From Schizosaccharomyces osmophilus (taxonomy: Eukaryota; Ascomycota; Schizosaccharomycetes; Schizosaccharomycetales; Schizosaccharomycetaceae): a stretch of DNA of 64,000 bases. Shown one piece after another: positions 13,883 through 49,882 of this stretch; within the stretch, counting starts at the first letter, position 1; every line of letters begins with the position of its first letter. The notes under the pieces were generated by a model. That model saw nothing but the letters and a program-made list of their open reading frames with translations, made no database searches and was not told where the DNA came from. The stretch lies in contig NC_079239.1 in the NCBI RefSeq assembly GCF_027921745.1, forward strand, positions 89,501-153,500, given 5' to 3'. The position numbers and the translations under genes are program-made.

Positions 13883-14002
13883 AAGCCTACAGCATCCCGG
13901 ATTCCCATGTTGTCTCCAACCATAGTACTAACGAGACCCTCAGACGCTTAACTGCAGTGATCGGACGGGAACTGGTGTTTTCGCCTAGGTGTGGCCGTAG
14001 AC
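13883..14002 (-). rRNA. 5S ribosomal RNA, copy 1 (intact)
   Basis: The minus strand reads as a full 120-nt 5S rRNA starting GTCTACGGCC and ending GCTGTAGGCTT, very like the fission yeast 5S sequence I remember. The 5' and 3' ends pair as helix I, and the internal control region is intact. Five T on the minus strand follow the 3' end as a pol III terminator. Dispersed single 5S genes are typical of fission yeasts. Confidence 0.95.
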
Positions 14003-14629
14003 ATATACTTGGTAAAGCACTTGTATTTGACAATCTTAAAGTTTTCTGTCAGCTTGATGTACTTCTTTGGCTTATTACATGACAAGTGCGTGATATAATT
14101 AAGAATGAAAAATAAAATAAAACAAAAATGACTACAGGATTTATCGTGTACTCGGCAAAACCCGTTCTTCCTTGAGGTTAAAATTGAATCTTACTGCAAG
14201 CTGCCATCTTATATCGAAAAGACAAAGCTCAACTCATCCCAATGATTTGTCACCACATGAAAGTATTTGAAATGGAACTTGCTTTGAAAGGATGAAACCT
14301 TGGGATTCCTGCTCAAACAACCTGCTTGTACAAATTTTACAGCTAAAACACCAACACGAATGAAATAGATATTTGATATTACAGTGATTTTGACCGAGTG
14401 TTCTTCGAATGCGAAAGCGAAATGTTGGCCAATCTTGGTGTGACTACTATTAAGAGCGAAACTACATGTTCGTTTCGCTTCGCATGCAATTTTAATGTCA
14501 AATAATACAAAGTGGTAAAGAAACGAAAACAATAACTGTAATCAACAAAGGAAGATTCATCTTTTGCCCTCTTTCTTGGTACAACTATCTTTTCTACTGC
14601 AATTTTTGTGCAGCTACTTTTTGTAGAAA
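14003..14629. other. 5S upstream flank and promoter of GPI-type gene
   Basis: No gene recognised. Part of the first 120 bases resembles the upstream flanks of 5S copies 3 and 5 weakly (shared CTTGATG and neighbouring bases). Two overlapping minus-strand frames (14209-14717) have no protein features. Confidence 0.45.
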
Positions 14630-15529
14630 ATGCTACTCTCGATTTGCATTTTGGCCTTCGCAGTATGCTTTTCGTATGCAATAAATGCGACAGTATATGA
14701 TCCATTGTCTTTAGCAATCAATAAGAATGCCAGTGCAAGGAGTGCTAATTACCCATTTTATATCCAAGCTTTTCCATACGATTTCAACTGCCATGGTAAC
14801 CTCTCGTTCCTTCAAAGTCCTCCTCCTATTGACGGACAAGGAGTCTATTCGAGTATGAATAATGTCAGCTCGTTTTTGACGGTTCCTGCGGATAATACCA
14901 GTGTCACCTGTGTGTACACAGGATACGACAAAAGGACATGCTATTCGGGAGATTCTCCAAAATGCTTTAGTATATCAAGCAGTATAAACAACGTAGATGT
15001 TTCCATGAATGATTCTTCCCATGTACTCGATGTGGACAATGGGTTTCACGTCGTGTACACCGAGAGTTACTATATAATTACCCCACAAACCACGTATGCA
15101 TATGTTAATGAAAGCCTCGAAAAACCTAAACACGATCCGTATGCAATATATAGAATCTATTTGTATTCTTGTGACGGTAATCAAACGTGTATGTTTGATT
15201 ACTTGAGTGGGGCCTTAACCAGAGATAAACAGAGATGTGGTCGAGAGTATTCTATTAAAAATAGACACTTTGAAAATAAAGAAAAATTTGTAGCTTATTT
15301 TGACGCACAGCGACAAAATACTGCAAGACAGACGAGTCTGTCTTTTATCCCCCCAAAGTTCAAGGCGATTTCTAATGGGCAAGCAGTGACCCAAATTGAG
15401 TTGGAGTCATCCATAAATTATGTCGATTCTGGCATAGATTGTATCTCTTCATCTACCTCTGTTCGCATGAAATATGGGCCGCTGTGCATTTGCTTAGCTT
15501 TTGGATTGATAATGTCGATTTTTTCATAA
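14630..15529 (+). CDS. putative GPI-anchored cell-surface glycoprotein, unknown family
   Basis: A 299-residue single-exon ORF. Residues 1-17 form a signal peptide ending in SYA. The C-terminus has a serine/threonine stretch (SSSTS) followed by a hydrophobic tail (YGPLCICLAFGLIMSIFS), the layout of a GPI-anchor signal. Many N-x-S/T sequons lie between, and about ten cysteines are scattered through the ectodomain (for example NCHG, TCVYTGYDKRTC, YSCDGNQTC), suggesting disulfides. I do not recognise the family; fission yeasts have several lineage-specific surface glycoprotein families. It is flanked by 5S copy 1 and a broken dehydrogenase, an unstable neighbourhood. Confidence 0.75.
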   Translation: MLLSICILAFAVCFSYAINATVYDPLSLAINKNASARSANYPFYIQAFPYDFNCHGNLSFLQSPPPIDGQGVYSSMNNVSSFLTVPADNTSVTCVYTGYDKRTCYSGDSPKCFSISSSINNVDVSMNDSSHVLDVDNGFHVVYTESYYIITPQTTYAYVNESLEKPKHDPYAIYRIYLYSCDGNQTCMFDYLSGALTRDKQRCGREYSIKNRHFENKEKFVAYFDAQRQNTARQTSLSFIPPKFKAISNGQAVTQIELESSINYVDSGIDCISSSTSVRMKYGPLCICLAFGLIMSIFS

Positions 15530-15954: not shown

Positions 15955-16163
15955 ATGGCATTGCAATATATTGTGAATGACACTAAGTGCGGCTTTGGCC
16001 AATTGAAGCTTCATGAAGCCAACCAAATTAGCTCTTAAACCCAACGAGGTTCAAGTAAGAATGAAAGCGGCTTCTCTCAACTACATAGACTTGGTCATCA
16101 TCAAAGGATTGTACTCTGTTCCTTTGGAGCTTCCTGTGATTCCTGGCTCTGATGGTCGGTGAG
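15955..16163 (+). pseudogene. 5' fragment of zinc-type alcohol dehydrogenase/quinone oxidoreductase
   Basis: The ATG at 15955 opens with MALQYIVNDTKCGFGQLKLH, then the frame ends at a stop near 16036. A neighbouring frame continues with KPNEVQVRMKAASLNYIDLV, IIKGLYSVP and LPVIPGSDG, the conserved N-terminal block of medium-chain dehydrogenases (GroES-like domain). After PGSDG nothing recognisable remains. So this is the first 65-70 codons of a MDR-family gene with one frameshift and loss of the rest. It was probably a functional duplicate of a gene elsewhere in the genome. Confidence 0.75.
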
Positions 16164-19441: not shown

Positions 19442-19558
19442 AAGCCTACAGCACCCTGAATACCGACCATTGTTGTCTTCAGTAAGAACGAGGACCAGAG
19501 ATATTTACCTGCGGTGATCAGTGGGAGCTGGCATTTTTGCCCGGGTGTGACAGTAGAG
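19442..19558 (-). pseudogene. 5S rRNA copy 2 (heavily decayed)
   Basis: About 117 bases align end to end with the intact 5S copies on the same strand. The 3' end (AAGCCTACAGC on plus) and scattered blocks such as GCGGTGATCAG are preserved, but many substitutions cover both the internal promoter and the stems. It is too changed to make a functional 5S RNA. Confidence 0.8.
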
Positions 19559-25949: not shown

Positions 25950-26069
25950 AAGCATACATCACCACAGATGCCCATGTTATCTCCAATCATAGTACTAAAG
26001 AGACCCTCAGACGCTTAACTGCAGTGATTTGATGGGAACTGGTGTTTTCGCCTAGGTGTGGCCGTAGAC
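25950..26069 (-). pseudogene. 5S rRNA copy 3 (5' half intact, 3' half changed)
   Basis: A 120-base match to the intact copies. The part encoding roughly the first 50 nt of the RNA is identical to copy 1, but the remainder carries about a dozen substitutions, several in the 3' strand of helix I and the adjacent stem. Part of the internal control region also changes. A T-rich terminator is weak. It is probably a pseudogene, though transcription is not excluded. Confidence 0.75.
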
Positions 26070-26733
26070 AATGATTTACTTTGTAAAAGCAATAAGAGCA
26101 TTTCGTCTTGTAGTAGTTGATGTTCTTTAGCGTTGTGTCAACTTGATGTCCTTTAAGATCCAATTCAACTCAGCTCTATTTTTGGTTTTTACAGCTGAAT
26201 GGAAGCTGTTTTGTTGAATTAATAAATGACAAAAGGGCTAAAAACGAGCTTATTTCTCTTTTCTATTGATTCACATTGCGCGTAGACGACCAAGTAAAGG
26301 TAACGTCGCACAGAATAGAGTTGGAATATGCGAGAACGTTCGTTACTTTTCATCATACAAAAGAGGAAATAGATGATTTTTCTAGAGATATCGCGAATGA
26401 CGAGTGAAGCTGTAGTAAACAAAAGGATTCAAGGAAAAAGAAAAGAAAAGAAAAGCAAACAAAATTCCTTTTTCTTATTCAGATTGGAAAGAAAGAACTA
26501 AAAAATGACATGAGAGATAAATGAAATACACGGAAATTCGTGGAATCCCGGTGGTGGCCAAGTGGCCGCATCTAGAAAGTACTAGGGCTCTAAAGAAATG
26601 ATCGAACCATCCTTGTGTTCACTTATAAATAGGAGTGAAGTAGGGTTGATTTGACAACATTGACAAAAAAAGAACAAGAGTTAATTTTTTTAGTTTATTT
26701 TCAAGTGTAGTGTGAAAACAAGCGCTATTTACA
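26070..26733 (+). promoter_or_regulatory. hsp16: 5S flank duplicate and hsp16 promoter
   Basis: Bases about 26150-26285 resemble the flank of 5S copy 5 (see the repeat entries). An exact heat-shock element core GAACGTTC (GAAnnTTC) is at 26334-26341. Further partial elements are a TTCTAGAG near 26380 and CTAGAAAG near 26574. An AAAAG repeat lies at 26430-26457. TATAAAT at 26624-26630 is about 105 bases before the ATG. Together these fit heat-shock-factor control. Confidence 0.65.
26150..26285. repeat. flank repeat shared with 5S copy 5
   Basis: Counterpart of the 36733-36862 block. It shows that 5S copies 3 and 5 were duplicated with at least 200 bases of upstream flank, not as bare RNA genes. 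Confidence 0.75.
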
Positions 26734-27165
26734 ATGTCTCTTCAACCTTTCTTCGAGTTGCACCCTTTCCAAGACGTCTTTTCTGACTTTCTGAGTTATT
26801 CTCCTCGTGTCCAACGCCAAAATTGTGTTGGCGATTTGTCACCTGCTATCGATGTTCACGAAGGCAAAGATACCGTCGAAGTGGATGTAGAACTTCCTGG
26901 TGTCAAAAAGCAAGACGTTCAAGTTCATTACGACGAAGGAAAGCTTACCATTTCTGGTGAATCTGTGAATGAGCGCAAGAGCGAAGGCGACAAGGGAAAC
27001 CAAAGATGGTCGGAACGTCGCTTTGGTTCCTTTTCCCGAACAATCACCATTCCAAACAAGGTAGATGCCGATCGTATTGAAGCTCAGTTCAACCACGGTA
27101 TTCTAAGCGTTGTCTTGCCCAAGATTGAGGAATCCCGTTCCAAGAAGCAAATCGCCATTAACTAA
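26734..27165 (+). CDS. hsp16: small heat-shock protein Hsp16
   Basis: 143 residues, the same as S. pombe Hsp16 from memory. The alpha-crystallin domain starts at about residue 33 (SPAIDVHEGKDTVEVDVELP) and contains the usual ELPGV, DEGKLTISGE and FNHGILSVVLPK elements; the last is the family's GxLxVxxPK-type motif. The C-terminal IAIN supplies the IxI-like oligomerisation motif. It is an ATP-independent holdase in cytoplasm and nucleus. The upstream heat-shock element and TATA box support stress induction. Confidence 0.95.
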   Translation: MSLQPFFELHPFQDVFSDFLSYSPRVQRQNCVGDLSPAIDVHEGKDTVEVDVELPGVKKQDVQVHYDEGKLTISGESVNERKSEGDKGNQRWSERRFGSFSRTITIPNKVDADRIEAQFNHGILSVVLPKIEESRSKKQIAIN

Positions 27166-33754: not shown

Positions 33755-33947
33755 TAACGCCAATAAGATTTTTATTGATGTTTCAAGAATTATTGCTTCC
33801 TGTCTATAATTTGCTGCGCATTCATTTCCTTCCATGAGTAGTATTATCGCTTAGTCGAAGACCATGTTGATAAAACGCACAGCTGTAGGTTTAAAAAAAA
33901 AAAAAAAAGCATAACCGAAAAGAAAGCAAAAAAAAATAAATGAGAAA

Positions 33948-34062
33948 AAGCCTACAGCATCCCAGTTTCGCATGCTGTCTCCAAGCTTACTAAATAGGAA
34001 TGAGGCTCTCAGACTCATAACTTTAGTGATCGAACGGCATTTTATGTTTTTGATTGGGTATA
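33948..34062 (-). pseudogene. 5S rRNA copy 4 (decayed)
   Basis: The first bases on the plus strand, AAGCCTACAGCATCCCAG, match the 3' end of 5S closely. Similarity then falls, with blocks such as CTGTCTCCAAG and GTGATCGAACGG kept. The end that should encode GTCTACGGCC is not recognisable. A non-functional relic. Confidence 0.75.
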
Positions 34063-34396: not shown

Positions 34397-35767
34397 TTAT
34401 GTGCGATTCTGCACTGTTGTTAGGGTATCATCATACTCCTTTTCATTTTCACTATTATAAGTCAACTCGTTCTTAGATACGCGCCAAATATAGCATGGTA
34501 ACAACAGCTTTAATCCATATAAGATAGTGTAAAACGCATAAGCACGTGTATAATAAATATAGTAGATGACAATGGGTGCCAATGTGATATTTGCAACGCA
34601 GTACCACAGCGATTGTTTTGCTAATTTCATAGAGTGCGCCGATTCCACAGAACCAGCTGACTTAAGAAAACGATTTAAAAGGTAGATTGCATATATCCAA
34701 AAGAAGTTGTCGCTAAGCTCTTCCAATAGGTCAATTTCATGTCGTAGTTTAACAAATGAAGGATATTGATGAGTGGTGAGATGGCTTATAGTGCAAAATA
34801 TCATTGGAATTGATAAGACAAGTATTCCACAGGTAATTGATTTTCGATGAATGGGACGCCATACTCCATAACCAAAAGCAATGGAATATAGTACCAATCT
34901 CTGAGCAAATATATTAGTATTCCCTAGTAAGTCTCTGAACAATTTATATTTTATCCATTGATCATGATTAAAACTTTTGATATTGTAAAACTCATGGATA
35001 AATCGAATAGTTGGTTCCCCTAAAACCGAGCAAATTATAAGTAGCAAAAGCCCGTAATGTACCGGAAGGAGTTTCGATCGGTGAAGAAGCATCATACACA
35101 CCCAACAAGTAGCAAGGAAGAGCAAACTAACTGGAAACATCAAAAGAAAGTAATTGACAGTCCTCTCATGAGGGACTGGGACATCTTCATACACTGATTT
35201 CGTTCTACTTAATTCCATATTTGGCAAACTTACAGAGCCATTTTTCAACAATGGTCTCGTAGCAAAGCAATACACCCCTCTTGTTTTTTCTTCAATTTCA
35301 AGAAATTCGTGTCGTTTACTGGAATTTGCAGGAAAGTTGAGTGTGCGTACAGAACTTCCATTGTATGTAAACGGACCAAGAATAGTGTCTCTCTCCTCAG
35401 GGCGAATGTATCGAGACACAGAAAATTCATTTATTTCTTCTGTGATTTGCGACAATTGAGAAATATGATGTAGTAGCTTTTCATCATAACCAAGAGCTAA
35501 TTCCCAATCCTGGAGATTGAAATAAGTACTACCAATCCCACTGTTACCCTCGTCGTCGATGCTGTTATATTTGGGATGTTGATCATCTGCATTAACCCGT
35601 TGGCAAGCAAGCCTGAATTGAAATTTGTCAAAATCATTATTATTTTCGTCGGAACCTGAAAGAAAACTATCAGAATCTGCTTTAATGAATGACAATAGTG
35701 AGCAACAAATAAAAAATCTAAATAAGTATTTATAGTAGGAATTCCCCATACTAGTCTTCCAGTTCAA
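34397..35767 (-). CDS. lung-seven-TM-type receptor-like membrane protein
   Basis: 456 residues. An N-terminal signal (FRFFICCSLLSFIKA) precedes a lumenal domain of about 190 residues with N-glycosylation sequons. Seven hydrophobic segments follow from about residue 205 (NYFLLMFPVSLLFLATCWVC). The core carries HRSKLLPVHYGLL and GYGVWRPIHRKS, which fit the GPR107/GPR108/Ptm1 family (LUSTR, Lung_7-TM_R). These proteins sit in the Golgi and endosomes and take part in trafficking; S. pombe has SPAC26H5.07c. The tail is acidic and cytosolic. A second ATG six codons in is also possible. A TATA-like element lies near 35820-35829. A decayed inverted copy lies 1.4 kb away. Confidence 0.85.
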   Translation of the reverse strand: MNWKTSMGNSYYKYLFRFFICCSLLSFIKADSDSFLSGSDENNNDFDKFQFRLACQRVNADDQHPKYNSIDDEGNSGIGSTYFNLQDWELALGYDEKLLHHISQLSQITEEINEFSVSRYIRPEERDTILGPFTYNGSSVRTLNFPANSSKRHEFLEIEEKTRGVYCFATRPLLKNGSVSLPNMELSRTKSVYEDVPVPHERTVNYFLLMFPVSLLFLATCWVCMMLLHRSKLLPVHYGLLLLIICSVLGEPTIRFIHEFYNIKSFNHDQWIKYKLFRDLLGNTNIFAQRLVLYSIAFGYGVWRPIHRKSITCGILVLSIPMIFCTISHLTTHQYPSFVKLRHEIDLLEELSDNFFWIYAIYLLNRFLKSAGSVESAHSMKLAKQSLWYCVANITLAPIVIYYIYYTRAYAFYTILYGLKLLLPCYIWRVSKNELTYNSENEKEYDDTLTTVQNRT

Positions 35768-36550
35768 ATTTCGTTTTTATGGAGGAAGTTGGTAAGGTAG
35801 TAGTGAGGAGAGCTGAAACTTATATATACCTCTGATGAAGAAGGTTTAGTAAAATAAAATATGAATCACATCCCTTTTTGATATTCCCAATCTGATTTTG
35901 CTCTCCTGCCACTTTCGAAACATCATAGGGTCAAGGGAACCTCCAAATATTACTTTAAATTATTGCTACAGGATAATATTATACAGTATAATATAATACT
36001 GTGTAAGCAAACACAAACACGAAAATGATGGATTTTTCCTGGATGGTACTGAGTTACAAGTTGAAACTTCATAGAATAAATTTTCTTTTACTTAGGAGTC
36101 TTAGTTTATTATAAAACTAACAACTAATTCCAGGAAATATATTTCAGGTGGGAAGAATTTCATGACAAAAGTCAGTATACTTGTTTTTTAACATATTCTA
36201 TTGCTGGGAAGAGTCAAAGTCAAAGGTTATTCTCGTTACCTGTTCGTAGAATCCATAGCGTCTGTCATGACATTCGTCGAAATCATTGAAAAAACATGCT
36301 TTATAGTCCCTGTTTCGCTAATAATAGAAGAGAACAAGAAGAAACTATTCATCGATGATGAGATTAACAGAAAAAACCTAGCAAACGTTACAGTTGGAAA
36401 AACATTTCATTTTGCTACATCCTCTTAGACATTAATAGCAGCGCAGTCCATCTTTGTATTGTTAGATATGTTTGTTAGGAAAGGACATTTCTGGTTCAAT
36501 GACGAGACGAGAAAAAACATATAAAATTTAAACAGAAAGACGAGAACAAA
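35768..36550. other. receptor upstream region to 5S copy 5
   Basis: No gene recognised. A 75-codon frame at 36201-36428 has an ordinary composition but no family match and no context, so I do not call it. Confidence 0.45.
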
Positions 36551-36670
36551 AAGCCTACAGCATCCCGGATTCCCATGTTGTCTCCAACCATAGTACTAAC
36601 GAGACCCTCAGACGCTTAACTGCAGTGATCGGACGGGAACTGGTGTTTTCGCCTAGGTATGGCCGTAGAC
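36551..36670 (-). rRNA. 5S ribosomal RNA, copy 5 (intact), left border of the wtf-wag cassette
   Basis: Full 120-nt 5S on the minus strand, identical to copy 1 apart from one base near the 5' end (GCCATACC instead of GCCACACC in the RNA sense), where it agrees with my memory of S. pombe 5S. The 3' flank, with five T, shares at least 20 bases with that of copy 1, so the terminators share an origin. Confidence 0.95.
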
Positions 36671-36732
36671 ATTTGTTATGATCTGTAAAGATATTTATTA
36701 CAATAATGATCCAGTCTTTTATTTGGCTTGAT

Positions 36733-36862
36733 GAACTACAAGATCCAATTCAACTCAGTTCTATCTGGTATTTTTCATGGCTAAATGGTGAATGCTTTCA
36801 TATTATAAGAATAATATTTGAAAACACACTGTTTTCTCTTCTTTATTGATTCACATTGTGGT
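36733..36862. repeat. flank repeat shared with 5S copy 3
   Basis: The blocks AAGATCCAATTCAACTCAG and TTATTGATTCACATTG also occur, in the same order and orientation and at a similar distance from the 5S, at 26155-26280. The sequence between is recognisably related. Confidence 0.75.
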
Positions 36863-37382
36863 CGCAGGAGCATCAAATTGAGTGTATGAGTTTATGGGTT
36901 GAAAATGTTACTTAATATAAATTGGGTTCTACTTGAAATTTTTCATGGTCCGTCGACTTGACTGCCAAAGTAAACGATAATTCAATGTTTTAAACTACAT
37001 CAATTGAACCTTCCAACCTGATGATTTGTGCTTTCTATGCTGTGAATGAATTTTACCTCTGGCGGTAATCACTTTCGTTCTTACAATTAATGAAAGACAC
37101 GACACAGTTTTGAGTAAAAAACTAGTTAATTACGATGGTATTTTCCTCAGAATAATTAAATAATCATTAAAAAGGGTGTCTATTCATGCAGAAAATGAAC
37201 GATGTCGTGAAACGAATAAGAAGATTCATGAAAGAGAAATGAGAAAAGCAATCAAAGTCTGCTGGTTTCATCTGATCCAAGCTTTTGTGGAAACGAATAC
37301 AGGAACTTGGTAGACTGCAATTGACATCGATGTTTCCAAAGAAGGAGCGAAATGTAAAGAACGAAAGCAGGTTCGGTAAAAC
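36863..37382. other. wtf 3' region
   Basis: AT-rich sequence downstream of wtf. No ORF or RNA recognised. Confidence 0.45.
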
Positions 37383-38425
37383 TCAAACATCAGCCCTTTG
37401 CTCAGCAAGAGGCTGAAGTTCGATTTCTTCGTTACGAGGTGGACCATTCCTGCTAATTCTGTTCTGACAGGTTATTAAGAGATCCTAGATTAAGAATAAT
37501 AAATGTACTTACTACACGTGTCATATCTTGAATATCTTCAATCACATCTGGGTTTCCTAGAGAAGTTAGAAAGGTTGATAGAAAATAGCACCTTACGAAT
37601 GAGAAGTACAAAGAAGCATATGTTCAGTACTGCCAAAACAACCAACACCGCAGCTGAATGTATATATTCAAATCCTCCTGATAATTTCAAAACGTAACCA
37701 CCGACTCCATTCAAACTTATCAGTATAATTAGGGCTTTACACACAGCTGGTGCCACTTTCTTTGTTGCTCTTCCAGCTTGCGTGAGCCCTTGTTTGGCCT
37801 GCGGGAACCATTCTTTAGGCAATTGAGTTATTACTAATAGTTAGTAAGTCATTAAAAATCCTGAAATTAGTTTCTTACCAATTGTCAATGACAAAAATAG
37901 AGCGCACCAAACGCCAAAAAGTACCCAAACGGCAAGCTGATTAAACGGAATTTCGTAAACAAGAAGAATGACCCTCGCAATAATTAAGCATACATTATAT
38001 ACAATAAAAATAGCAAAAACAATTGCTAATTTACGAGGCGTCAGATACCTTTTCTTTTTAGAACTTTCTTCTGTTTCAGGAGCCATTTCTAGATCAATAA
38101 ATTTGGTTGAAGCTAATGGATGTATTATTAACTGTTCTTTCGTTGTTTGTGAAAAGGATAGAGGTATTCGCCCTGTTTGTTGACACTTATCGACAAGGTT
38201 ATTAGTTTCAAACCCATCAAATAAATAAACAAGCATGATTCTTCCATCATGAACCGTTCAAACAAGAACACAAAGAATAAACCTTTCCTTTCCATTTCAA
38301 CTAATCTTACCTGAATACGGAGGAGGCGTACCATCAGAAGGAGACGACTGACTATCTACCTTTTCATCATTGAGCGTTTTGGAAGAGTCATCAGAATCCG
38401 AAATAGGAGTATATTTGTTTTTCAT
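37383..38425 (-). CDS. wtf: wtf-family gene (meiotic driver/antidote family), five exons, looks whole
   Basis: Exons on the minus strand are 38425-38311, 38172-37879, 37833-37597, 37556-37513 and 37463-37383, giving 256 residues with all phases consistent. All donors are GTAAGN, and introns 2 and 3 have clear CTAAC branch points. Exon 1 encodes MKNKYTPISDSDDSS and a PY motif PPPYS (residues 34-38), typical of the wtf antidote N-terminus. Exons 2-4 encode about six hydrophobic segments. Exon 5 ends NEEIELQPLAEQRADV, the wtf C-terminal pattern. Known members make two proteins from one gene: a full-length antidote and an exon-1-less poison from a transcript starting in intron 1. Here exon 2 has an in-frame Met (residue 68, 38086-38084). 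Intron 1 holds FLEX-like sites. Whether this copy drives, only protects or is silent cannot be read here. Confidence 0.9.
38174..38184 (-). promoter_or_regulatory. FLEX-like (Mei4) site at the 3' end of wtf intron 1
   Basis: On the minus strand the sequence is GTCAACAAACA, 10 of 11 matches to FLEX GTAAACAAACA and a match to the forkhead core RYMAACA. It abuts exon 2. A second, weaker match on the other strand (ATAAACAAGCA) lies at 38223-38233 in the same intron. FLEX elements in intron 1 are described for driver-type wtf genes. Confidence 0.5.
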
Positions 38426-39468
38426 ATTTACAATGGCAATCAGAGCCCAAAATAACACCGATATTTACCCTCTAAACGAAATCAACTATTTAATCACCAA
38501 GAAAAGTCCGTAGGAACTGGCCCCAGGTTTCACAGATCTTTCAAAAATAGGAATTGGACCTTACGTTAAAAACAAACAAATTTTTCAACACAACTTTTCC
38601 CTTAAAAACCAAAGATGCGAGTTTGAAAAAATCTTGGTAATGGCTTTTCGCATGTCTCAATTCATAAAGCTGCGACATTATGTCACTGACTGGTCACAGT
38701 CCTCGTTACGATTATTCAACGTTGGTTTTTTATTGCGATTTTTCTAAATAGTATAATCCAAAAGAGTCGTCGTTTATTACAAAAAGTAAACAAAGGAACA
38801 TTTGGCAAAACAACCATGCTGTTTGCTTAAATTATAAATAGCAGGATTAGAAATGCATATATTTGTATTGGAAGGTTCTGTGACTTTGGCTTAACAGGTT
38901 TTACAGTTTTCATTTCGTTAATTAGATCCTAAACTTGAGAATAATTGGTCCACTGGTATAAAAGCAGAATCCCAATTGAATGAAAATATGATTATTTACA
39001 CAATCAGTCATTTAACAAGAAAGCGAATGGGAAAGGTTCGACGCTTGTTTTATAATGTTCCCAAGACCCATCAGAAGTGTCATACAATACTTGTGTAGCT
39101 GTAAATATGGAAAATCATAATTAACGACATTTATAGTGACTAGTACATCTTTATTTAATTTATTTTAATCACACGATAGAAACAAACAAAAGCGATTTCG
39201 GACTGTTCATTCATTGTAAATATATATAGAATAGCGTACGCTTACTAGCTATCTGTATGTGTGTCAGAGAGGGTGAATGACAGCTTCACCTCTGCAAAAC
39301 TCTAGTCATTGCCATTGTGGACTCGATTCATGTAGTTTGGAGTTGTTACAAAGTAGATTTATATTAAACTTGTTAGTCGGATCAGATGTGTGCTACTGTT
39401 TTGAAAGTTCTGACATGAATTTGGGTGTTTACTGCCTGTTTGAGTAGGTTTTGAAGGAATTTCAGAAA
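38426..39468. promoter_or_regulatory. wtf-wag divergent intergenic region
   Basis: 1.04 kb between the two start codons. AT-rich, with no ORF. It must contain both promoters for the long wtf transcript and for wag. Confidence 0.5.
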
Positions 39469-40330
39469 ATGACTGAAAAAAACAAATACAAAAAGCTAAA
39501 AGATGCTGATTCAGCTGACGTTCCTCGCTTGGGCACTCTTGCAACGTTTGACGGTGAACTGCCACGGTACAATGAAATCTTGAATTCTCATCTAGACGAC
39601 TTGGAAAAAGGTCATGCACCTCCGTACTCAGAAAACAGACATCAAGAAGCGTCTACCAACATGGCACAAGGAAGCGGATTCTTTATTCTTTTACGAAATG
39701 TCTTGACGGCATTATTGTGGTTGATTCTCTGGCCGGCAAAAATTGTGAGAATCCCCGAAGCAAAGCGGAGACAGGAGAATGAACTTCTTCGGCTTGGTTG
39801 GTGCTTTATTGGTTCAATCGTATTGGACTTTTGGTTTTCTTACAAATACCTTGTCCCCTTTATAAAGGAATCGATAAAAGAATCTGTAGGGGTAAACTTT
39901 CAAGCTACTGTAGCAGTTGTTTTTTTCGTCGTGGCTTTCTATATGTTCTTATTTGTTTTTTCACGTAAGTGGAATGGTGGGATTTTAATTTGATATGTTT
40001 ACTAATGGGGTACTTTTAGTGTTGGTGGATATAATCGTTATATTGATTCCTCTAGTTTTTACTTGGATTTCCTCGATTTTTTCTGGGATTTTTTCTGTGA
40101 TTACTAGTGCTCTAGGCTTCAGGATGTCATCGGATAGAAACGACTTGACGGATGATAATAGTATCCCATTAAACAGCTTGCCACCAGAGCCTGAAAACCA
40201 GTTCAACGATCGTAGTGATGATACTTTTAAACAACCGTCCTCTGAACATACCTCTGAACATACTGAGCAATCTCCAGGGTTACGCCAGGAACCGGGTCAG
40301 TCTAGGGATGTTGAAAGCGGTGGGAATTGA
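39469..40330 (+). CDS. wag: wag-type UPF0494 membrane protein, two exons
   Basis: ATG 39469; exon 1 39469-39964, exon 2 40020-40330, 268 residues. The 55-base intron has GTAAGT, a perfect TACTAAT and TTTTAG, and keeps the frame. Residues 1-55 are polar and carry two PY-type motifs, LPRYNE and APPYSE, with DLEKG between them. Membrane segments start at about residue 76 (FFILLRNVLTALLWLILWPAK), then WCFIGSIVLDFWFSYKYLVP, VAVVFFVVAFYMFLFVF and a hydrophobic exon-2 start. The body resembles the S. pombe UPF0494 family as I remember it, and such genes (wag) neighbour wtf genes in related species. In S. pombe relatives the FSRxxxGxVLFW segment is coding; here it would fall in the intron. So the alternative is an unspliced gene disrupted near 39990. 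Function unknown; the long tail is acidic and hydrophilic. Confidence 0.72.
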
Positions 40331-40658
40331 TTTATACGGAAAGTAAAGCATTGTTTTTTATAATGTCCGGTCTTTTCGATTTTTCTCCAGCATGCTTTTG
40401 CTTATGTTTATGTTTCATCTTTGCATTTTGTATTTTATATTTATTCGTCAAGCACTTTTTAATTACTGATCCTTATAGAATCTTTTCAATTCTAACTAAC
40501 AAGGAATTTAATTAATTTGTGAATCATGGTTGACCATTGCTTCCTTGCAATCACTAGTATCACTAAGTCAAACGTCTATGTCGATCAAGACGAAAGCCAT
40601 GTGCTTCAATTTTTAAAAGAGCAACAAAGAGAAGCAAAAAGTAAAATAAAACAGTGAA
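40331..40658. other. wag 3' region
   Basis: AT-rich. A 62-codon hydrophobic frame overlapping the wag stop (40327-40515) has no start context and looks like chance. Confidence 0.45.
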
Positions 40659-40778
40659 AAGCCTACAGCATCCCGGATTCCCATGTTGTCTCCAACCATA
40701 GTACTAACGAGACCCTCAGACGCTTAACTGCAGTGATCGGACGGGAACTGGTGTTTTCGCCAAGGTGTGGCCGTAGAC
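40659..40778 (-). rRNA. 5S ribosomal RNA, copy 6 (intact), right border of the wtf-wag cassette
   Basis: Full 120-nt 5S on the minus strand. It differs from copy 1 by one base (CCAAGG instead of CCTAGG on the plus strand), in the first internal loop region. TATATGAG on the plus strand at about 40799-40806 lies 20-28 bases upstream of its start and may act as the TATA element. The 3' flank (plus GTGAAAAGCC) offers only four T, so termination may be weaker. Confidence 0.93.
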
Positions 40779-41223: not shown

Positions 41224-42871
41224 ATGGGAAGAGAGATTATTACGATTCAAGCCGGGCAATGCGGTAATCAAAGTAAGTGTTTTTCATAGTTTGGAGCATA
41301 CTGCTAATTCATTTGCTTACAGTTGGTTCTCAGTTTTGGCAGCAACTGTGTCTTGAACATGGTATTAGCCCCGATGGCACTCTAGAAGATTACGCTACGG
41401 ATGGCGTGGATCGAAAAGACGTCTTCTTCTATCAGGTATGAACATAAGGATTGATTTGAATACTAACTAATCTTTTTATACAGTCAGATGATAATAGATA
41501 TATTCCAAGAGCACTTCTGATTGACCTTGAGCCAAGGGTAAGAGAAATCCCATTTACTAGTTTGTAGTAGACTAACTAACAAACGCCTTTAGGTGGTATC
41601 CAACATCCTTAGTGATACATACGGAAATCTATACAATCCAGAAAATATCTTGGTTACAAAAAATGGCGGCGGTGCTGGAAATAATTGGGCCCATGGGTAT
41701 TCTTACGCCGACCGGATTTTCGAAGATATCATGGACATGATTGACCGTGAAGCTGATGGAAGCGATTCTTTGGAAGGGTTTTCTCTTTTACATTCTATAG
41801 CTGGTGGTACAGGTTCAGGATTGGGCTCTTATTTGTTGGAACGCTTAAACGATAGATTTCCCAAAAAAATTGTCCAAACCTATTCCGTTTTTCCTAATAA
41901 TCAGTCGGTTTCTGATGTTGTCGTTCAACCATATAACAGTCTTCTCGCACTTAAGAGGTTAACTCTCAATGCTGACGCCGTTGTTGTTTTGGACAACGCC
42001 GCGCTGGCTCATATTGCTGCCGACCGTCTCCATATCCAAAACCCAACTTTTCATCAACAAAATCAACTGGTAGGCTCAATTTCTAAGTATCTGCTCTAAC
42101 GGCTTGTAGGTTTCTACTGTGATGTCTGCAAGTACCAACACCCTTCGATATCCTGGCTATATGAACAACGATTTAGTCAGTATTATCGCGTCTTTAATCC
42201 CAACTCCTCGTTGTCATTTCCTTTCTACATCATATACCCCATTTACGAACCAACAAGTGGAGGAAGCTAAAACAATTAGAAAAACAACTGTTTTAGAAGT
42301 CATGAGAAGGTTGCTTCAACCAAAAAACCGAATGGTGTCTGTAAATCCTAGTAAACAAAGTTGCTTTATTAGCCTGTTAAACATCATTCAAGGAGAAGCT
42401 GACCCCACTGATGTACACAAGTCTCTTCTCCGTATTCGTGAAAGAAAGCTTGCGACTTTCATACCTTGGGGACCCGCGAGTATCCAAGTCGCACTTTCCA
42501 AGAAATCTCCTTACATAAAAACAAATCATCGTGTTAGCGGATTGATGCTTGCAAACCATACGAGCATTGCGTCGGTAAGTATCATTTTGCAATTGGAGCA
42601 TCAATCATCAGAAATAATAGAATCTAATATTTGTTAGTTATTCAAGAGGACCCTAGATCAATATGATCGTTTGCGAAAACGAAATGCATTCCTTGACCAA
42701 TACAAAAAGGAGTCAATCTTTGAGGATAATTTGGACGAATTTGATTCTTCGAGGTATGTCATTTACATTTTAATTGTTCAAAAGCTTACGAGGTTTGTAA
42801 ACAGAGAGGTTGTCTCCAATTTGATTCAAGAGTATGAGGCATGTGAGAACCCTAATTATCTATCCATGTGA
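41224..42871 (+). CDS. gtb1: gamma-tubulin, seven exons
   Basis: Exons 41224-41272, 41323-41435, 41484-41537, 41593-42069, 42110-42574, 42638-42753 and 42805-42871 give 446 residues, the length of S. pombe gamma-tubulin. The start [20 protein letters not shown] is diagnostic. The GTP-binding tubulin signature is GGTGSGLGS in exon 4. Exon junction 4/5 restores [24 protein letters not shown]. The C-terminus is [13 protein letters not shown]. It nucleates microtubules at spindle pole bodies and cytoplasmic organising centres in the gamma-tubulin complex. The introns are 39-63 bases and cluster at the ends of the gene. It is the first gene of the chromosome-II-like block. Confidence 0.97.
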
Positions 42872-47720: not shown

Positions 47721-49204
47721 TTTCAATTATATAGTAGTAAAAGTGCCTTGAAGATGTCCTTTTTTATACAATGAAGCTGGTTTAGTGAATTTTATAAAAT
47801 CATCAGCTAGTCTGAAGCCTTTCAGTAAGGAAAGTAAATTAGTGCAAGTAAATCTAGAGGTAGATGGTTTATGTTAAGTAAGGGAATTTAAAGAAACAAG
47901 AAAAAACTTCGCAAGTATAAATCAACAACTGCTGTGCCATTACTTTCTTTTCGTTGCAGTGCTTCGCTCCTTTGAAGCTAGGCGATGAAACTGAGTGAAT
48001 GCATGTGAGCCTTGCATGAAACTTTTTTGTTAAGCGCATTCAGTTTTTCATCATATTTAATGGTAATTTAAAAAAAAAAAGTAAAATAAATTGCTGTTGA
48101 TCCCAGTAATGGAGGTTGGTCAGAATAATAAGATTTACATGCACAAAGGAAAAAAAAAAAAAAGCATAAATTAAACTAGCTTACAATGCTTAATACCAAT
48201 TCGCTCAAAGCCTTCTTGATTAATTTTCTTTCAGTTTACCGTTCGTGTGCGATTATCAGATTTTCTTTTGTTTACTAGCTGCAAATGAAGAAAACAGCCT
48301 ACTATGCTTTGATGAAATTTCAAGAATAGTTTTTCAATGTAACAAAGAAATATAAAATAGGAATCACGGGAGACAATAGAAAAGAATTACAAAGAGTATG
48401 AAATTATTGTTTAATGTCCTTCCGTGTAGATTGTTACTCTGTTTGTTTACTTTGCTACCTGCGAAAACAATGAGTGGTTTGTGTCGCGTCGCGATTTAGC
48501 AACAACACTCATCCACCCATTGTAAGTAAAACATAAAAACGCGAGTTTTTATGAATTGAAGGGTTGCTGAGCTTTATTTCTTTTGTCGAGAAAGTTATCT
48601 TTGCTTGCTTCACCGAAGGTTTATTAAAAAGTCGTTCCTTGACGAAAAAGAGCCCTGCTGCTCTCTGAGTGGAAGATACAAATTCATTGAATTCCCAATC
48701 TATAGACAATTTTGGTTACTAAATTTTAGCTCAAGACCCAAGGTTCATGAGTTTTTATTAAAAAAGTCCATTTAGTTGCTTACAATCACAGTTGTTATTG
48801 TTTCAACAGGTTTTAATTTACCTCTTTTTGATTATTATCGTGGGCATTATATTACTAAAAAAATTCTTGGACTGAAAAGTTTTACAAAGTCTGCGTTTGC
48901 ATCCCAACTTTTTGGGTTCATTTTATTTTGATTTGTTTTTATAAATCTATTTTGTTATTCTGGTCTTTTTTGATTTAACTTTCGTTTTGTGAATTGCAAA
49001 GCTTAGTTTTCTTTGTTATTATTCACCGTTAAGGGAGGAACCGTATCTAAAGCTCTTTCTTCCAGGACCACATTCTATAGCACTACCCTCACAAAATACT
49101 AAAGATTTTTATCTGTTTCGTTTATTTGAATTGCTGAGTCTTTGAGAATAACTTTATTGTTGCTCTATCTATCATCAATTACTCTTTTACTGAACCCCAA
49201 AAAA
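47721..49204. promoter_or_regulatory. duo1/rum1 divergent upstream region (1.5 kb)
   Basis: Long divergent spacer. TGTTTGTTTAC at 48440-48450 is a perfect reverse match to FLEX. There are A10-A13 tracts near 48070 and 48149. No ORF with family features. The size suggests a long rum1 leader or complex control. Confidence 0.5.
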
Positions 49205-49882
49205 ATGGAGCCTACTACTCCGCCTTTGCGGCCTGTATGTACTCCAACTACTCCAGAGTCACCATCGAATTCCAAAATTGATCTTGAAAGCTACTTTGAC
49301 TCTGAGACGAACGACTCAAGTACCAGGTATACTGGGTTACCGAACGCCGAAGCTTCTTGCAATGGGCTCCCACCCACACCTGCGAAAACTCCCAAAAAGC
49401 GACTGTTTCCTTCTTTACTTCGAGAACGAAACAATCAGACGCTCCCACTCATCGAAGAAGATGCTGATAATAATCCGTTTTTGGGACCTCCTGCGTCAGC
49501 TGAGGTGGTTGCGAAACGGAAACGTGAGTTGGAAGCACCTCCATCGGATGGTTTATTTTATGTTTTCCGCGGGAAAAAGGTGAAAAAAATGTTCTCAGGA
49601 GGAACAGACTCGTCATCACTGAAACCCAGACGACTATTTCCAGAAGCTGCAAGCAGTTCCACAGCAACGCCTTTCTCTCGCACGATGGAGACTTCTCAGC
49701 AACCTCACATTGGCGTTCTTCCTCCAGACTGTAATCATGAACAAAAGTCCTTGTATGGATCATCATCTCTTTTTGGGTCAGCCACTGCTGCATCATCACC
49801 ATTCCGAAATCGTGGTTCCCATCCACCCCCCTCTCATACTTCTTCATTTAACAATGGAAGGAACCACCAACTTCCGAGGTGA
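49205..49882 (+). CDS. rum1: CDK inhibitor Rum1
   Basis: 225 residues from ATG 49205 (S. pombe Rum1 is 230). The start MEPTTPPLRPVCTPTTPESP and the block PPTPAKTPKKRLFPSLL are shared with S. pombe Rum1; the two T-P sites in PPTPAKTP are the known CDK/MAPK phosphorylation sites that trigger its degradation. The central inhibitory region contains PPSDGLFYVFRGKKVKKMF. The C-terminus is low in conservation and Ser/Pro rich. It blocks Cdc2-cyclin B in G1 and is removed by the SCF (Pop1/Pop2) pathway. The frame opens upstream at 49142 with a non-ATG codon, but the family start is at 49205. Confidence 0.93.
   Translation: MEPTTPPLRPVCTPTTPESPSNSKIDLESYFDSETNDSSTRYTGLPNAEASCNGLPPTPAKTPKKRLFPSLLRERNNQTLPLIEEDADNNPFLGPPASAEVVAKRKRELEAPPSDGLFYVFRGKKVKKMFSGGTDSSSLKPRRLFPEAASSSTATPFSRTMETSQQPHIGVLPPDCNHEQKSLYGSSSLFGSATAASSPFRNRGSHPPPSHTSSFNNGRNHQLPR

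What the first reader, a model, noticed from the sequence alone, without database searches (positions are those of the whole stretch)
36551..40778. Whole-looking wtf gene and wag-type gene in a cassette bordered by two intact 5S rRNA genes
The order 5S(-), wtf(-), UPF0494/wag(+), 5S(-) is the arrangement I recall being reported for wtf meiotic drivers outside S. pombe. Seen directly: a five-exon wtf frame with consistent phases and ends typical of the family, a divergent UPF0494-like gene, and intact 5S on both sides. This is the strongest candidate for a selfish genetic system in the window. Inferred: recombination between 5S copies may move or remove the cassette.
Basis: partly seen in the sequence, partly recalled or inferred. 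Interest (0 to 1): 0.85.

Follow-up and report, generated by a model that had tools for sequence, protein, structure and literature searches.

The report
Fission-yeast wtf–wag cassette between 5S genes
This is a fission-yeast gene of the wtf family (genes that can kill spores lacking them), sitting with its usual companion gene between two 5S ribosomal RNA genes, an arrangement already in print; whether this copy kills or only protects is not settled by its sequence.

Summary
Two intact 5S genes in the same orientation (117 of 119 bases identical) enclose a five-exon wtf gene (-, 256 aa) and a divergent two-exon gene in the wag position (+, 268 aa). The spliced wtf product matches Pfam WTF (E 3.2e-4; 21.0 bits, below the curated 25). 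Order, orientation, exon number and a single PY motif in the N-terminal tail are those published for S. octosporus, S. osmophilus and S. cryophilus (De Carvalho 2022; Zheng 2023). A wtf presence/absence difference ascribed to tandem 5S recombination is in print too. It is a known kind of locus, probably already catalogued.

The UPF0494 label found no support (no DUF999 match). Killer status is open: the first in-frame exon-2 ATG is at base 87, against base 27 in the proven driver wtf25, and the FLEX-like sites in intron 1 are imperfect, so antidote-only is nearly as likely as driver.

Two leads, not seen in the passages I read: the wag protein carries a PY motif about as far from its start as wtf's, and part of the wtf–5S linker recurs beside another 5S gene next to a small heat-shock gene, recalling centromeric 5S-associated repeats.

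The parts
36552..36670 (-). 5S rRNA gene C (wtf-side border)
   Evidence: Rfam RF00001, 107 bits; TTTTT run directly 3'
36671..37382 (-). linker between wtf stop and 5S; its part 36724-36870 has a relative beside 5S B
   Evidence: nhmmer E 9.7e-10 to 26139-26290; blastn 101/140 identical, 56.3 bits against at most 30.1 in 200 Markov shuffles
37383..38425 (-). wtf gene, five exons, 256 aa: exons 38425-38311, 38172-37879, 37833-37597, 37556-37513, 37463-37383
   Evidence: gene model; Pfam WTF E 3.2e-4, 21.0 bits
38315..38326 (-). PY motif PPPY (residues 34-37) in exon 1, present only in the long isoform
   Evidence: residue positions; coordinates worked out by hand from the exon-1 start at 38425
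38173..38310 (-). intron 1 (138 nt), where poison promoters lie in known wtf drivers; FLEX-like sites at 38184-38174 (1 mismatch, sense), 38225-38235 and 38221-38231 (2 mismatches each, opposite strand, overlapping)
38084..38086 (-). Met68, first in-frame ATG of exon 2 (base 87 of the exon); candidate start of a PY-less short isoform (189 aa)
39469..40330 (+). wag-position gene, exons 39469-39964 and 40020-40330, 268 aa, hydrophobic stretches at residues 68-90 and 138-195, PY motif LPRY at residues 31-34
40660..40778 (-). 5S rRNA gene D (wag-side border), 446 bp before a tubulin gene starting at 41224
   Evidence: Rfam RF00001, 100.9 bits; start of tubulin gene; Pfam Tubulin

Best explanation
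This is a wtf-family gene in a 5S-wag-wtf-5S unit of a non-pombe fission yeast. Shown: the intact five-exon frame, the divergent companion, the direct 5S repeats, one PY motif in the tail that only the long isoform has, and an in-frame second start (Met68) downstream of FLEX-like sites. Inferred from work on relatives: the long protein (exons 1-5) is an antidote kept harmless because its PY motif recruits Rsp5/NEDD4-type ubiquitin ligases that send it, with bound partner, to endosome and vacuole; a meiotic transcript starting in or just after intron 1 would give a PY-less protein from Met68, a poison reaching all spores, so that only spores with the antidote live. I put about 50% on this copy being driver-capable, 40% on antidote-only, 10% on neither. 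The 5S direct repeats would give the unit its mobility and fragility: recombination between them could delete it to one 5S gene or release a circle.
For: Gene model and WTF match; WTF is seen in 0 of 7 local shuffles, whose best chance match of any family has E 0.011. Arrangement as published: 5S-associated, wag between wtf and the upstream 5S, wag and wtf divergent. Gene structure like the five-exon genes of the three non-pombe species. Exactly one PY motif in the antidote tail, as reported for the intact wtf genes of those species. A FLEX-like site of 1 mismatch in intron 1: 93 of 4000 random 138-nt pieces of the window have at least one. A second, weaker site has the opposite orientation and lies 139 nt before Met68; in S. 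pombe wtf4 the motif has the opposite orientation and lies 110 bp before the poison start. No other ATG lies between the 1-mismatch site and Met68. Direct 5S repeats 117/119 identical, 4108 bp apart.
Against: The WTF score is below Pfam's curated cut-off (21.0 against 25); the first 74 residues alone and the part from Met68 alone have no WTF match at E up to 10. No exact FLEX motif in intron 1. The start at base 87 of exon 2 is later than in wtf25. No expression, toxicity or cross data. No wtf or wag sequence of a named species could be aligned; none was found in the one collection I searched for them.
Confidence: 0.87

Rival explanations
1. Antidote-only wtf gene: it makes only the long PY-bearing protein and protects spores against a related driver, so it is a suppressor and not itself a killer.
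For: No ATG near the start of exon 2 (first in-frame one at base 87), while S. octosporus wtf25 starts its poison at base 27; S. osmophilus wtf16 and S. cryophilus wtf2 are reported to lack that start. FLEX-like sites imperfect. Out-of-frame ATGs precede Met68 in any transcript that begins early in intron 1.
Against: Met68 is in frame, and a protein from it keeps the hydrophobic regions and loses the PY motif. 14 S. octosporus genes without a confident FLEX site still make short transcripts.
Confidence: 0.4
2. Decayed wtf gene: the frame is open but splicing fails or the protein is no longer functional.
For: No early exon-2 ATG; by reading, no 7-aa repeat in the exon-4 product (no repeat program was run on it).
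Against: Five open exons with consistent phases, GTAAG donors throughout and a closed frame; repeat number varies between genes in print.
Confidence: 0.1
3. An unrelated membrane-protein gene that only sits in a wtf-like place.
For: Pfam score under the curated cut-off; one other weak match, DUF6594, E 0.016, which a shuffled version also gives (E 0.017).
Against: WTF is the best match among 24736 models, starts at profile position 1 and appears only in the spliced order; exon number, PY motif, 5S and wag context all agree.
Confidence: 0.03
4. The 5S genes are chance neighbours and play no part in moving or deleting the unit.
Against: In print: the wtf31 presence/absence difference between S. 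osmophilus strains, ascribed to tandem 5S genes, and a 5S gene in S. cryophilus at 11 of the 12 sites where S. osmophilus has a 5S-flanked wtf gene and S. cryophilus has none.
Confidence: 0.15

Closest known systems
5S-wag-wtf-5S units of S. octosporus, S. osmophilus and S. cryophilus (De Carvalho 2022, PMC9562144; sections 5, 7-11 and 16, first part of 6, passages elsewhere)
   Same: Order, divergent wag, flanking 5S genes, five exons, an in-frame start inside exon 2
   Different: Exon-2 start later than in wtf25; no exact FLEX motif; wag identity rests on position and orientation, not on sequence comparison
S. octosporus wtf25, proven poison-antidote driver (passages in PMC9562144 and PMC11892871)
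   Same: Five-exon gene whose long isoform carries a PY motif
   Different: wtf25 poison starts at base 27 of exon 2, here base 87; wtf25 has repeats in exon 4, none seen here by reading
S. pombe wtf4 (passages in PMC9762604 and PMC11892871)
   Same: FLEX-like site in intron 1 in opposite orientation, upstream of the second start
   Different: Here the site is degenerate; wtf4 has six exons and an LTR upstream
S. osmophilus wtf16 and S. cryophilus wtf2, lacking the exon-2 start (one sentence in PMC9562144)
   Same: No start codon at the very beginning of exon 2
Centromeric Five-S-Associated Repeats with hsp16 genes, S. cryophilus (passages in PMC6538654)
   Same: 5S genes with interposed genes; a 5S gene here lies 665 bp before an Hsp20-domain gene and shares a linker with the wtf side
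   Different: This unit lies beside conserved genes and is single in the window; whether the window is near a centromere was not tested

Membership tests
wtf family (non-pombe type) | Sequence relation to Wtf proteins | tested here: met
   Pfam WTF E 3.2e-4, best hit; 21.0 bits, under the curated 25; in print the closest S. pombe-S. octosporus pair shares only 16% identity
wtf family (non-pombe type) | Five-exon structure | tested here: met
   transcripts not available
wtf family (non-pombe type) | Multi-pass membrane protein whose antidote isoform has one PY motif in its N-terminal tail | tested here: met
   PPPY at residues 34-37; four hydrophobic regions, my count from overlapping hydropathy peaks; published rule
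[quoted passage not shown]
   Met68 at base 87 of exon 2; wtf25 at base 27
wtf poison-antidote driver | FLEX (Mei4) motif in intron 1 | tested here: inconclusive
   No exact site; one with 1 mismatch, two overlapping with 2. Not required: 20 of 48 intact genes in S. octosporus, 1 of 2 in S. cryophilus and 0 of 31 in S. osmophilus have a confident site
wtf poison-antidote driver | Toxic short protein, neutralised by long protein; biased spore survival | not testable with these tools
   needs expression and crosses
5S-associated wtf unit | Flanking 5S genes, here in direct orientation | tested here: met
5S-associated wtf unit | Presence/absence between strains or species | not testable with these tools
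   no genome is held for this window
wag family | Between wtf and its upstream 5S gene, divergent from wtf | tested here: met
   rule
wag family | Sequence similarity to published wag genes | not testable with these tools
   I had no wag sequence to compare; no Pfam family over its cut-off
UPF0494 / DUF999 | Match to PF06198 | tested here: not met
   no match at E up to 10 with whole protein or parts, though HMMER's filters drop most matches above about 0.1; the model exists (where it rang in 0 of 14 control genomes, so no positive control); UPF0494 = DUF999 is recalled
Five-S-Associated Repeat (centromeric) | Repeated array | tested here: not met
   no second copy of wtf or wag in the window
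Five-S-Associated Repeat (centromeric) | Pericentromeric position | not testable with these tools
   chromosomal position of the window is unknown

The most novel reading that the evidence does not exclude
Wag is not a passenger but a functional partner. Like the Wtf antidote it is a membrane protein with a PY motif some 30 residues from its start, so it could be ubiquitinated by the same ligases, enter the same Golgi-to-endosome route and tune the neighbouring wtf as accessory antidote, carrier or suppressor. The wtf-wag units and the centromeric 5S-associated repeats with hsp16 genes would then be one class of 5S-borne exchangeable gene units, of which the shared linker beside 5S B is a trace.
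Probability: 0.12. Interest if true: 0.7.

Novelty: already known. Interest (0 to 1): 0.3.

Why it matters
wtf genes are natural spore killers reported to have lasted over 100 million years. This locus adds little to that picture as such. It would matter if the wag partner, called uncharacterised in the papers I saw, proved to act on the same trafficking route, or if 5S genes were shown to shuttle several kinds of genes (wtf, wag, hsp16) and not wtf alone.

Tried and rejected
Whole genome of the window: none held, so no paralogue or strain comparison. Relatives of the wag (203-residue part) and wtf proteins in viral contigs: none confirmed (18 and 1 pattern matches, 0 confirmed). Bacterial genome contigs were not scanned. 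Solved structures: none for wtf at E up to 1; for wag one chance-like match, E 0.76. Further wtf or wag pieces in the window beside the other 5S genes: none beyond chance level by tblastn, and none at E up to 1 by six-frame phmmer.

Common origin of Wag and Wtf: their N-terminal tails align with a score reached in 34 of 5000 shuffles, but BLASTP gives only E 0.084 and the membrane parts align no better than shuffles (1583 of 2000 reach the score). Not shown; kept as a lead. A PY motif arises in 518 of 20000 shuffles of the 70-residue wag tail and 1100 of 20000 of the 86-residue wtf tail, so the wag motif alone is weak evidence.

Species: not determined. S. octosporus is unlikely, since 106 of its 114 5S genes are wtf-associated while 2 of the 4 Rfam-level 5S genes here have no detectable wtf beside them. 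S. cryophilus is my guess (no 7-aa exon-4 repeat seen, a repeat reported for S. octosporus and S. osmophilus; 5S beside an Hsp20 gene); S. osmophilus and S. lindneri are not excluded. Structure prediction was not run: a spliced protein is not given letter for letter by contiguous window DNA, and single exons without relatives would give poor models.
Full report
What is there. Rfam finds four 5S genes in the window, all on the minus strand: A 13884-14002, B 25951-26069, C 36552-36670 and D 40660-40778. C and D border the reported interval and share 117 of 119 bases; each differs from A at 1 of 119. Between them lie two genes. On the minus strand a five-exon frame of 256 codons runs from 38425 to 37383 with introns of 138, 45, 40 and 49 nt, every donor beginning GTAAG and every intron ending AG. 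On the plus strand a two-exon frame of 268 codons runs from 39469 to 40330. The two are divergent, with about 1 kb between their starts.

Identity of the minus-strand gene. Its two longest exon-bearing frames searched alone give no WTF match at E up to 1. The spliced protein gives Pfam WTF as its best match among 24736 models, E 3.2e-4, 21.0 bits, residues 1-150 on profile positions 1-152. That is under the curated cut-off of 25 bits. The controls: 0 of 7 locally shuffled versions show WTF, and their best match to any family has E 0.011; the product with the alternative intron 4 does show it (E 3.0e-4). The first 74 residues alone and the part from Met68 on alone do not at E up to 10. The second match of the spliced protein, DUF6594 (E 0.016), is also given by one shuffle. 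A weak score is what the literature leads one to expect, since the closest S. octosporus-S. pombe pair shares 16% identity and PSI-BLAST was used to find the non-pombe genes. The other features agree: five exons, one PY motif in the tail (PPPY, residues 34-37), as reported for the intact genes of three non-pombe species, and four hydrophobic regions by my count.

Killer or protector. Published drivers make a poison from a transcript starting in intron 1. In S. octosporus wtf25 the poison starts at base 27 of exon 2. Here the first in-frame ATG of exon 2 is Met68 at base 87 (38086); another in-frame ATG lies inside intron 1 (38236), open into exon 2. Intron 1 has no exact FLEX motif. It has one site with 1 mismatch, ending next to the 3' splice site, and two overlapping sites with 2 mismatches on the other strand. 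Of 4000 random 138-nt pieces of the window, 93 have a site with at most 1 mismatch and 12 have three or more with at most 2. In S. pombe wtf4 the motif is in opposite orientation and 110 bp before the poison start; here one of the two opposite-strand sites (38225-38235) is 139 nt before Met68. So a driver layout is recognisable but worn. Two published genes lack the early exon-2 start and appear suppressor-like, and this gene may be of that sort. I give 50% driver-capable, 40% antidote-only, 10% neither. How either would act is inferred from Zheng 2023 (passages read): PY-dependent ubiquitination sends the long protein and its bound partner to the endosome, and protein that is not ubiquitinated stays toxic.

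The companion. By position and orientation it is a wag gene. Sequence comparison with wag genes was not possible. Pfam gives nothing over a cut-off, and DUF999 (PF06198), whose model exists, is not matched at E up to 10; no positive control for that model was at hand (0 of 14 control genomes rang). The protein has an LPRY motif at residues 31-34, about where wtf has PPPY. A PY motif arises in 518 of 20000 shuffles of that tail. The tails of the two proteins align with a score reached by 34 of 5000 shuffles, but BLASTP gives E 0.084 and the membrane parts show nothing. 'wag' does not occur in the main text of the PY-motif paper or of the S. osmophilus genome paper. Of the papers in the listings, I saw wag genes discussed in De Carvalho 2022 and, in one passage, in a 2025 preprint that calls the family uncharacterised; other listed papers that hold the word, in whatever sense, were not opened.

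The 5S setting. Two more 5S relics lie on the same strand: 19443-19558 (22.3 bits, under the gathering score) and about 33945-34061 (blastn 74-76% to parts of intact copies; not listed by Rfam at E up to 5). All six 5S-like sequences found are on the minus strand and lie between 13.8 and 40.8 kb. C shares its 3' flank with A (161-base block, 96%). Part of the wtf-5S linker (36727-36858) is 72% identical over 140 columns to the upstream side of B (26142-26278); 56.3 bits against a maximum of 30.1 in 200 Markov shuffles, and the upstream sides of A, D and both relics give no more than 22.0. B lies 665 bp before an Hsp20-domain gene. In S. cryophilus centromeres, 5S-associated repeats carry hsp16 genes. 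The shared linker may be the trace of a lost wtf-type unit, of a wider class of 5S-borne units, or of an old duplication of a 5S flank; this cannot be decided here. I made no literature search for such a link beyond and the passages read.

Comparison with print. The arrangement, the spread of wtf genes to 5S sites (a 5S gene in S. cryophilus at 11 of 12 sites where S. osmophilus has a 5S-flanked wtf gene and S. cryophilus has no wtf gene) and the presence/absence of wtf31 between S. osmophilus strains, likely by tandem 5S recombination, are published. To the right the unit meets a run of conserved genes: tubulin, Isy1, cyclin, RINGv, Duo1, phosphoglucomutase, glyceraldehyde-phosphate dehydrogenase, UBR-type ligase (one frame among the ten of that call is the amidohydrolase to the left, and the frame 49130-49879 had no match).

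Verdict. A sound observation of a known kind of locus. Papers: De Carvalho 2022 (sections 5, 7-11 and 16, first part of section 6, passages elsewhere); Zheng 2023, Nidamangala Srinivasa 2025, the S. osmophilus genome paper, Tong 2019, the tdk preprint and Nuckolls 2022 (passages only). Supplementary tables, which list the wtf loci, were not open to me, so whether this very locus is listed is not shown.

Noticed in passing
25951-26069 and 26734-27162: A diverged 5S gene (106-107 of 119 bases like A, C, D; only three T directly at its 3' end) lies 665 bp before an Hsp20-domain gene and shares a linker with the wtf side of the cassette.
   Followed up: partly
19443-19558 and 33945-34061: Two decayed 5S copies on the same strand as the four others; the first scores 22.3 bits in Rfam, under the gathering score, the second is seen by blastn only.
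   Followed up: partly
12900-40800: A stretch with all six 5S-like sequences and transporter, flavin oxidoreductase, amidohydrolase, NmrA and Hsp20 genes lies between two runs of conserved housekeeping-type genes.
   Followed up: partly
about 15955-16162: A 41-residue fragment matching ADH_N (E 2.7e-6) and ended by a stop, with a preceding 27-residue fragment without match: looks like an alcohol dehydrogenase-like relic.
   Followed up: partly
34400-35776 (-) and 14627-15526 (+): Two long frames that look secreted by eye and have no Pfam match (E up to 1; E up to 0.001), each within about 0.8 kb of a 5S gene or relic.
   Followed up: no
39422-39432 and 38786-38796: Forkhead-type cores (GTAAACA) in the shared wtf-wag upstream region, one 37 bp before the wag start.
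   Followed up: no
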